In this document: piece by piece, positions 4,594-6,363 of the stretch
How the letters are laid out: the number at the start of each line of letters is the position of its first letter
Position numbering within the stretch: the stretch's first letter is position 1
Position numbers and translations under genes: made by a program
The notes under the pieces: model-generated
Seen by the model: only the letters and a program-made list of their open reading frames with translations
The model's database searches: none
What the model was told of the DNA's origin: nothing
Source of the DNA: JADFSZ01 sp022560555 [NCBI: PVC group bacterium]
GTDB taxonomy: Bacteria > GCA-001730085 > JADFSZ01
Reading direction: 5' to 3'
Length of the DNA: 6,363 nt
Assembly: GCA_022560555.1 (NCBI GenBank)
Contig: JADFSZ010000103.1
Coordinates: forward strand, 1 to 6,363

Positions 4594-4621
4594 ATTATAA
4601 GCTACTCTTGACGAATGACAA
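4594..4621 (-). promoter_or_regulatory. Sigma-70-like promoter of the EEP-DoxX operon
   Basis: On the minus strand TTGTCA (4616-4621) and TATAAT (4594-4599) are separated by 16 nt. The -35 matches consensus at five of six positions and the -10 at all six. Transcription would start near 4587, leaving a leader of about 30 nt before the EEP start at 4556. The stretch 4600-4686 between this site and the upstream gene shows no other gene that I can support. Confidence 0.65.
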
Positions 4622-4686
4622 ACGTATAGTTATTCAGATTTGTCACCCCCAGTTCCATGGCATATTCGTGACGCGAGATTCTGACT

Positions 4687-5358
4687 TTACTTCCAAAAAC
4701 GATCGCTTTTAGGAATCGTTTTTTTTCTTCCTTCCTCCATGGGATCAAATCCCAGTTTCCCAAACAAGTACCACACCGAAGAAGATACTGACGGCATGGT
4801 TTCAGCTCCACGCCATAATTTCCCGTGCCCATAATGAGTCCCCTTATTTGTGACATAGGGGAGGCCCGCCTGATGAGATTTTTCCGATACAACCAAAATC
4901 ATTTTATTCATCTCACGAAGATATTTTTTGGCTTCGGCATACATCCCTGCGCTTTGAAAAGCCACGATCATCTGCCCTGTTCCCTCTAGCCAGATCGTAT
5001 CAAGATCTGTATCAAAGCAAAACCCTGACACTTTTTCACCATTCGCCACAGCTGTTTTCGTAACCACATACCGGTCCGTATTTTTAAGTATGTCTCTTGT
5101 CATCCTTGGAAAAGCGCAATACCCCCAAGAGTGTGTATCAAGAGCATATTGATAATTTTTATGCTCCCTCCACGAGAGAAATAATTTTTGATCTTTGTCC
5201 CAATAGCCTTTGCCAAGAAAATCAAGAATGCTCTTATGAAACTGATCATATCCGCTTACAGCATTAAACACGTCAATGATCGCTTCCGTCGACTTATCAA
5301 TCCGAACTCCGTCCTTATCAAATCCACCCCATACTCCTCCGGTACAAATTGTGGCTCT
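4687..5358 (-). pseudogene. C-terminal fragment of a glycosidase-fold-like (six-hairpin type) protein
   Basis: The frame is open for 223 codons from 5358 to the TAA at 4687, but a stop (5359-5361) bounds it upstream and no ATG with a ribosome site leads it. The first possible initiator, GTG at 5271, lies inside conserved-looking sequence, since GGFDKDGVRIDKSTEAIID precedes it in the same frame. Helix-loop blocks such as DTHSWGYCAF, DTDLDTIWLEGTGQM, GLPYVTNKGTHYGHGKLW and PSVSSSVWYLFGKLGF resemble the alpha/alpha-barrel of six-hairpin glycosidases, an assignment made from memory of the pattern and not firm. There is no signal peptide or N-terminal domain. The 5' end is probably lost at the junction with the phage-like block; alternatively a frameshift at the four-G run 5327-5330 hides a start at 5369. 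It may be expressed from a promoter-like site at 5378-5406, but a working enzyme is doubtful. Confidence 0.6.
4695..4726. terminator. Candidate AT-rich bidirectional terminator hairpin
   Basis: A 9-bp inverted repeat, AAAAACGAT (4695-4703) with ATCGTTTTT (4715-4723), encloses an 11-nt loop and runs into eight T residues (4719-4726) on the plus strand. On the minus strand the hairpin ends in five T residues, just before the TAA of the glycosidase-like fragment. It could stop readthrough of that fragment into the EEP operon and block plus-strand transcripts. The stem is AT-rich and the loop long, so it would be weak. Confidence 0.3.
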
Positions 5359-5377
5359 TTATCTGGCATGATTTGTC

Positions 5378-5406
5378 ATTATGCCATAAATTTGACACTC
5401 AGTAAA
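5378..5406 (-). promoter_or_regulatory. Promoter-like site at the chromosomal/phage junction
   Basis: On the minus strand TTTACT (5401-5406) and CATAAT (5378-5383) are separated by exactly 17 nt, with four and five of six consensus matches. It would drive transcription into the glycosidase-like fragment with a start near 5371. Because it lies at the point where both flanking genes break off, it may be accidental in AT-rich DNA or formed by the rearrangement itself. Confidence 0.35.
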
Positions 5407-5531
5407 CGCTTCTAAATAAAAATGACGAAACGGTCTTGAAAGCCTTGCGAATCGCTGATTATTATTGTTTAAAAGATCAAGGCATTGGACCTGTAATACA
5501 TGCTTTAAATGAATCTTTTTCGGTTAAATAA
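5406..5531 (+). pseudogene. Tail of a 5'-truncated gene, probably phage-derived
   Basis: A frame of 41 codons ends at TAA 5529-5531 and is bounded upstream by TAA at 5403-5405. It has no ATG and no ribosome site; TTG codons at 5436 and 5445 are the only weak start options. The peptide (TLLNKNDETVLKALRIADYY, then CLKDQGIGPVIHALNESFSVK) looks protein-like, with helical spacing. It stops 11 nt before the next gene, as the end of an upstream operon member would. I read it as the C-terminus of a phage gene whose front is lost at the junction. I do not recognise the family; a chance open frame is the alternative. Confidence 0.4.
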
Positions 5532-5542
5532 AAAGGTAAATT

Positions 5543-6139
5543 ATGGACGGATTTCCAATTATTAATAAACTTGAGGTTGAAGGAGATGTAGCGCATGACG
5601 CTGTGGATTCAGGGAAGCCTGTAAAAATTGGGGTGAAGGTAGTTGATTATGAGCCGGATACTGAAGACGAACAGGGCCGAGCAGAGATCGCCGAAGGGGA
5701 TCGGGGCGATGTCGCGGCGAATTTGCGTCAGGAAATAATTGAAGGCGTGAATTCATTATTTCATTTGTTTGACGGCGAGTTCCCAAATACAGGACTTGAT
5801 GGTCTTTATGATGGTAGCCCAACTGAGTCAACGAGTGAAGTTGTAGAATGCTGGAATTATCGTTACGCTACTTTTTGATTTTCTATAGTTTCTACGGGTT
5901 CCCCGACAAGTATTCAAATTTTCGTTCAGGTTTCAGCAGACGGGACGAATTTTGCTGACTTAACTAATGATGCGTTAGGGGGTTGGATTCACAGTGATGC
6001 TTCGGTCCAAACTTTAATTTTTGATTCTTATATGTTTCCAATCGCGGCTCGTTTTTTAAGAGTAAAAATAGCGGCAACTGGTACATCTGGTGAAAATATT
6101 TTTACTATAGATAACTCTTTTATATATTTGCGAAACTAA
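5543..6139 (+). pseudogene. Phage structural-like protein interrupted by one in-frame TGA
   Basis: The ATG at 5543 has AAGG 6 nt upstream (5533-5536). The frame reads 111 codons to TGA at 5876-5878 and continues in the same phase for 86 codons to TAA at 6137-6139, 198 positions in all. The N-terminal part (VEGDVAHDAVDSGKPVKIG, then AEGDRGDVAANL) is of a kind common in uncharacterised phage virion or tail-associated proteins. The part after the stop (TGSPTSIQIFVQVSADGTNF, later FPIAARFLRVKIAATGTSG) reads as a beta-sandwich, discoidin-like surface domain. The stop falls in ATF-TGA-FSIVSTG, where Trp would fit. TGG codons for Trp also occur in this gene. Either a nonsense mutation, TGA decoded as Trp in a recoded phage, or a sequence error explains it. 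The next gene overlaps the stop as TAATG. Function in host or virion is inferred. Confidence 0.6.
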
Positions 6140-6363
6140 TGGCTGTAGTTCATGTTTATAAAAAACTGACTTACAATTCACCTCCGGTTGAACAGTGGAA
6201 AACTTCAACGGGAATAGATAATACTTCGATTGAGTATGTGGGTGGGAATTAGTTTTTAATGACCAATACGGATACCAACCAAACTCAATTGCGATTATGG
6301 CGGCGAGATTCAGTAAAAAAGGAATTTGTATTAATCAAGACCATAGCTACCTTTTCAGACGGT
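6139..6363 (+). pseudogene. Second phage-like gene, interrupted by in-frame TAG, 3' end outside window
   Basis: The ATG at 6139 shares its A with the TAA of the preceding gene, so translation is probably coupled; no separate Shine-Dalgarno is visible. The frame gives 37 codons (MAVVHVYKKLTYNSPPVEQW onwards), then TAG at 6250-6252, then 37 more codons in phase to the window edge (FLMTNTDTNQTQLRLWRRDS onwards). Both halves look like one continuous beta-rich protein. A lysine, glutamate or glutamine codon one base away from TAG would fit the site. I do not recognise the family; phage origin is inferred from the tight coupling to the gene before it. The sequence past the window would show whether the frame continues. 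Confidence 0.5.

What the first reader, a model, noticed from the sequence alone, without database searches (positions are those of the whole stretch)
5340..5420. Two 5'-truncated genes meet head to head at a sharp junction
The minus-strand glycosidase-like frame is open only up to 5358 and the plus-strand phage-like tail only from 5406. Both lack starts, and both would need sequence the other side occupies. Gene direction, gene content and stop-codon behaviour all change here. This fits a prophage or recombination boundary, a large deletion, or an assembly join.
Basis: partly seen in the sequence, partly recalled or inferred. Interest (0 to 1): 0.7.

Follow-up and report, generated by a model that had tools for sequence, protein, structure and literature searches.

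The report
Beheaded sugar-enzyme gene beside phage debris
On one contig of a draft bacterial genome, a gene that looks like a sugar-cutting enzyme has lost its front part exactly where foreign, apparently decaying phage DNA begins; this is a gene break of an ordinary kind, and without the sequencing reads it cannot be told for certain from an assembly error.

Summary
The break is real, but only half of its description holds. The minus-strand gene (4687-5340) is the C-terminal part of an (alpha/alpha)6-toroid, glycosidase-like protein. Four of four relatives confirmed in genome contigs align only from window 5340 (query residue 7), yet their own frames run on upstream by about 173 residues or more. 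The missing part was not found elsewhere in the bin. The right-hand gene is not clearly truncated: a phage-like gene starts at its own ATG (5543) and matches three IMG/VR contigs (47%, E 1e-49 to 3e-49). It is interrupted by an in-frame TGA, and the next gene by a TAG. Third-position GC of these genes (0.32) lies below all 101 sampled host genes. The 202 bases between (5341-5542) match nothing I searched.

Best reading: decaying phage DNA that replaced the front of a host gene (0.5). An assembly or library chimera is nearly as likely (0.38): the phage side ends with the contig, and searches for portal, terminase and capsid found nothing in the bin (controls uneven). A recoded phage is unlikely: relatives use TAG and TGA as stops. 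Low interest.

The parts
4687..5340 (-). C-terminal remnant (217 codons with homology) of an (alpha/alpha)6-toroid, glycosidase-like gene; first 173 or so residues missing
   Evidence: 4 of 4 confirmed relatives align from query residue 7 only; alignment A1/A4; fold of the intact relative L009
5341..5358 (-). six codons in frame with the remnant but without similarity to any of the aligned relatives; then TAA 5359-5361
5341..5542 (.). unassigned stretch that must hold the breakpoint's right-hand edge; no similar DNA in the bin beyond 14-24-base chance matches
5406..5528 (+).
5543..6139 (+). phage-like structural-module gene (198 codons plus TAA 6137-6139), interrupted by in-frame TGA at 5876-5878
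   Evidence: 47% to IMG/VR contigs L018, L026, L027 over query residues 9/11-198
6139..6363 (+). start of the next phage-like gene (ATG overlaps the preceding TAA), interrupted by in-frame TAG at 6250-6252; runs off the contig
   Evidence: aligns with the next gene of L018 (35%) and of L026 (24%), no E-value computed

Best explanation
The junction is a breakpoint in the host population's DNA at which a phage-derived fragment replaced, or was inserted into, the front part of a glycosidase-like gene, and the phage fragment has since been decaying. The left gene keeps its C-terminal 217 codons but has lost its signal/start region and over a third of the toroid, so it should make no working enzyme. 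The right side holds pieces of a phage structural module with two nonsense codons. Shown: truncation at 5340, phage homology from about 5567, foreign composition, two in-frame stops. Inferred: that the join exists in a real chromosome, and that decay is the cause of the stops. The mode of joining (integration followed by deletion, or illegitimate recombination) is not known.
For: Homology of the left gene stops at 5340 in 4 of 4 confirmed relatives whose frames run on. Search of the bin with the N-terminal 186 residues of L009 found only the two paralogues on C50 and C168, which served as positive controls. The right-hand gene matches viral contigs. Third-position GC of the two phage genes 0.32, against a minimum of 0.352 in 101 host genes and 0 of 162 equal-length pieces at or below 0.32; tetranucleotide distance, order-3 likelihood and GC in the outer 2.7-4.4% of 338 host windows. 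Two in-frame stops within one short stretch of virion genes, where relatives have ordinary sense codons and where relatives use all three stops as stops: that fits chromosomal debris better than an active phage. One pair of 19 contigs compared overlaps by exactly 127 bases, which suggests a k=127 de Bruijn assembler (inference); such an assembler joins only where k-mers span, and no repeat of that size lies at the junction in this bin.
Against: No read data. The phage side ends with the contig after about 0.8 kb of phage genes. The C-terminal remnant shows no decay of its own (no stop in 217 codons), although it should have been free to decay for as long as the phage genes. No terminase (phrog_2, control rings in 11 of 14 genomes) or portal (phrog_156, control rings in only 1 of 14) was found in the bin, nor a relative of L018's capsid gene (no positive control). 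No att-like repeat or integrase is visible. Synonymous codon choice of the phage genes is less distinctive than GC3: 9.9% of host genes score lower.
Confidence: 0.5

Rival explanations
1. Assembly or library chimera: a phage contig from the same sample was joined to a host contig inside the glycosidase-like gene.
For: The joined genes are unrelated, the phage part is short and ends with the contig, its composition differs, no other part of such a phage was found in the bin, the last 304 bases overlap no other contig of the bin, and the glycosidase N-terminus is missing although the bin is 91.5% complete. A draft in 222 contigs is the setting in which such joins occur; PMC8207588 (one passage seen) names chimeric contigs as assembly errors.
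Against: An active phage should not carry two in-frame stops in virion genes, unless they are errors of thin coverage. No repeat in the bin at the junction that would explain a graph misjoin; a repeat shared with another organism of the sample is not excluded. The left end of the contig also overlaps no binned contig, so a missing overlap on the right means little.
Confidence: 0.38
2. Border of a prophage that is intact beyond the contig end, the two stops being sequencing errors or tolerated; the rest of the prophage was assembled separately and not binned.
For: Phage gene order in the window follows L018/L026; prophages often break contigs because their depth differs (established knowledge).
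Against: Site-specific prophages end at integrase/att, not in the middle of a structural module; none of those marks is seen, and there is no terminase or portal in the bin.
Confidence: 0.06
3. An active phage that reads TGA and TAG as sense codons and uses TAA alone as stop, joined to host DNA either way.
For: Both visible phage gene ends (5529-5531, 6137-6139) are TAA, and the interior stops are a TGA and a TAG.
Against: Relatives L018 and L026 end genes with TAA, TAG and TGA alike (11 and 7 ends looked at); the TAATG overlap fixes TAA at 6137 in them too; the residues aligned with each interior stop differ between the two relatives, so no single reassignment is suggested. Two codons only.
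Confidence: 0.03

Closest known systems
(alpha/alpha)6-toroid glycosidases and sugar epimerases (solved examples: methylmannose polysaccharide hydrolase MmpH 7qsj, glucoamylases such as 1lf6)
   Same: Model of the intact relative L009 aligns with 7qsj_B at Z 28.9, rmsd 2.9, 304 residues, and with 1lf6_A at Z 25.8
   Different: No Pfam, NCBIfam or PDB sequence match for the intact relatives L009 and L011 or for the alignment; enzyme activity unknown; the window copy lacks the first third or more
Structural module of uncultivated tailed phages IMGVR_UViG_3300029183_000019, _3300025889_001258 and _3300006802_012955; weakly, podovirus MW202647
   Same: 47% identity over the last 188-190 residues of the first gene, then a second gene in the same order with an overlapping ATG. 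L018 carries portal and major head matches in PHROGs upstream
   Different: Window genes carry in-frame stops; the N-terminal part of the first gene is absent; MW202647 aligns only with the L026 protein, over 66 residues at E 1e-3, not with the window protein
Prophage remnant / gene disrupted by phage DNA (general kind)
   Same: Host gene cut, foreign phage genes with nonsense codons beside it
   Different: Integrase, att sites and the other border were not seen

Membership tests
(alpha/alpha)6-toroid glycosidase-like protein (left gene) | six-hairpin helical toroid fold in the intact relative | tested here: met
   AlphaFold2 model of L009, mean pLDDT 76.6, pTM 0.83 (other four models 49.9-62.5; only 5 sequences in the alignment); Z 28.9 to 7qsj
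(alpha/alpha)6-toroid glycosidase-like protein (left gene) | complete domain in the window copy | tested here: not met
   first 173 residues of L009 have no counterpart; the model's toroid spans about residues 37-387
known glycoside hydrolase family | match to a curated family model | tested here: not met
   window fragment: only DUF7029 at E 0.015 below cut-off, none in NCBIfam; L009 and L011: none in Pfam and only sub-cutoff chance hits in NCBIfam
known glycoside hydrolase family | catalytic acid residues and activity | not tested
   -
tailed-phage structural module (right genes) | homology to genes next to portal and capsid genes of viral contigs | tested here: met
   no PHROG match of the window proteins themselves better than E 0.02
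tailed-phage structural module (right genes) | open, unbroken genes | tested here: not met
   in-frame TGA 5876-5878 and TAG 6250-6252
prophage | integrase and att repeats at the border | tested here: inconclusive
   no integrase frame among those inspected at the border and no long repeat in the window; the other border lies beyond the contig; no search of the bin for an integrase was made
prophage | packaging and head genes in the same genome | tested here: inconclusive
   phrog_2, phrog_156 and the L018 capsid protein gave no match in G000; controls: 11 of 14, 1 of 14, none; bin 91.5% complete
assembly chimera | no reads span the join | not testable with these tools
   no reads available

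The most novel reading that the evidence does not exclude
The right-hand side is a phage that reads both TGA and TAG as sense codons, with TAA as its only stop, recombining with a member of a sparsely sampled bacterial phylum.
Probability: 0.03. Interest if true: 0.55.

Novelty: new member of a known kind. Interest (0 to 1): 0.13.

Why it matters
It matters mainly as a caution. The gene caller will report a 194-residue enzyme here that is a remnant, and the phage genes must not be taken as evidence of a phage-host link until reads confirm the join. If the join is real, it is one dated example of phage DNA disrupting a carbohydrate-active gene in a poorly sampled phylum (only one other genome of the phylum appeared among the 59 searched).

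Tried and rejected
Two apparent viral relatives of the first phage segment (L012, L013; 37% over 38 residues, E 1e-3) were set aside as chance: the aligned stretch falls in a contig region whose long frame runs on the other strand (L012 only looked at), and neither came back with the longer query.

Searches that found nothing for the right-hand side: INPHARED tblastn with the window gene and with L018, blastn of 5300-5700, plasmids blastn of 4600-6363, viral contigs with residues after the TGA alone and with an exact 39-base junction pattern, and 386 relatives, in which only the window's own genome matched. The 41-codon frame gave one chance match at E 3 and no match to a degenerate pattern of its best peptide. 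Glycosidase relatives were sought in viral contigs to see whether the gene itself travels on phages: 58 stretches matched a pattern, none was confirmed.

An RNA element or terminator at the junction was considered: the fold of 5341-5545 is no better than shuffles (z 0.38), no terminator was found, and two promoter-like sites compare with 1.3 +/- 1.2 in shuffles. Repeats in the window are short two-copy families of the chance kind. A structure prediction of the phage protein was poor (mean pLDDT 51.3) and was not used. A first paper search for chimeric contigs with prophage and misassembly held no paper; two searches were seen as listings with abstract starts; of PMC8207588 one passage was seen.

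Full report
What was given. The window is the whole of contig C73 (6363 bases, no ambiguous base) of a 1.66 Mb draft in 222 contigs, 91.5% complete. The claim was that two 5'-truncated genes meet head to head at 5340-5420.

Left gene. The minus-strand frame 4687-5358 has no start codon before the GTG at 5271. A scan of genome contigs by peptide patterns gave 25 candidate stretches, of which 4 encode relatives: L008 (Candidatus Kappaea frigidicola, 59%), L009 (Omnitrophota, 56%), L010 (Elusimicrobia, 52%) and L011 (Spirochaetes, 45%) (names as in the record titles). All 4 align from query residue 7, that is window 5338-5340. Their own frames run on: L009 has 173 residues before the aligned Gly-Gly, L008 about 187 in an open frame that begins at the contig edge, L011 a similar length, and in L010 the domain sits inside a 1097-residue protein. 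In the bin, two paralogues (C50, C168) are also longer. The N-terminal 186 residues of L009 found only these two paralogues in the bin. So the gene is cut at 5340.

What the left gene was. No Pfam match reaches its cut-off for the fragment, and none exists for intact L009 and L011; the alignment matches no PDB sequence. A model of L009 (mean pLDDT 76.6, pTM 0.83; the other four models lower, 49.9-62.5) is an (alpha/alpha)6-type toroid: best matches are methylmannose polysaccharide hydrolase MmpH (Z 28.9, rmsd 2.9 over 304 residues) and glucoamylase-type enzymes. The toroid spans about residues 37-387, so the window copy has lost over a third of it; that it is inactive is inference.

Right side. 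The gene with viral relatives is 5543-6136 (TAA at 6137-6139). It begins with ATG six bases after AAAAAGG. It is 47% identical to the C-terminal part of a gene on IMG/VR contig L018 (E 1e-49) and on two nearly identical contigs, L026 and L027. The following gene, whose ATG overlaps the stop as in both relatives, aligns with the next gene there at 35% and 24%; no E-value was computed for it. L018 carries a portal match and a major head match a few genes upstream (PHROGs), so this is a phage structural module. In the relatives the first gene is longer (439 and 545 residues), so an N-terminal part may be missing here as well.

Stops. The first phage gene has an in-frame TGA (5876-5878) with homology continuing on both sides; the second has an in-frame TAG (6250-6252). 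The two relatives have ordinary sense codons there, different from each other, and they end genes with all three stop codons (11 ends in L018, 7 in L026). Nonsense codons in decaying genes, or base errors in thin coverage, are therefore likelier than a changed code.

Foreign composition. From 18 usable contigs of a 20-contig sample (148,737 bases) I took 338 windows of 958 bases; the right segment lies in the outer 3.3% for likelihood, 2.7% for tetranucleotide distance and 4.4% for GC, while the ten windows of the left part show no such joint deviation, one of them having a similarly low GC (0.053). Third-position GC of the two phage genes is 0.32, against a minimum of 0.352 among 101 host genes; 0 of 162 host pieces of 272 codons are as low. 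Synonymous codon choice is less telling: 9.9% of host genes score lower, and the amine-oxidase-like gene at the window's left end scores about the same.

Real join or artefact. For a real join: the nonsense codons, which an active phage should not have; no repeat at the junction in the bin; and a 127-base overlap between two of 19 contigs, which hints at an assembler that needs spanning k-mers. For an artefact: the phage part ends with the contig; no terminase, portal or capsid relative was found in the bin (the controls rang in 11 of 14, 1 of 14 and not at all); the right end overlaps no binned contig, though neither does the left end; and the glycosidase remnant shows no decay of its own. 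I put a decaying phage fragment in the chromosome at 0.5 and a chimera at 0.38.

Full-length homologues that begin at the break were sought and not found. The same junction elsewhere was not found in viral contigs by an exact 39-base pattern, nor any relative of the left gene there. Spanning reads and an att copy could not be tested.

Noticed in passing
window 5256-5369 (-): A 37-codon frame starting ATG at 5369 on the minus strand crosses the junction out of frame with the glycosidase remnant, with a 9-of-12 promoter-like site just upstream (5406-5378); possibly the start of another gene cut by the same break, but nothing supports it beyond the sequence.
   Followed up: no
G000 contigs C50 and C168 (L005, L006): Two full-length paralogues of the cut gene in the same bin (30-35% identity), one fused behind a PilZ domain (L006).
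   Followed up: partly
L010:2826-6119: In an Elusimicrobia bin the same domain is embedded in a 1097-residue protein with a glycosidase TIM-barrel match and two F5/8 type C domains, which supports a carbohydrate-active role.
   Followed up: partly
L012:2825-4918 (-): A viral clamp-loader-like frame appears to be interrupted by an in-frame intein-like segment (judged by eye from the translation).
   Followed up: no
L042 start and L046 end (G000 C135, C185): Two contigs of the bin overlap by exactly 127 bases, a likely trace of a k=127 assembly.
   Followed up: partly
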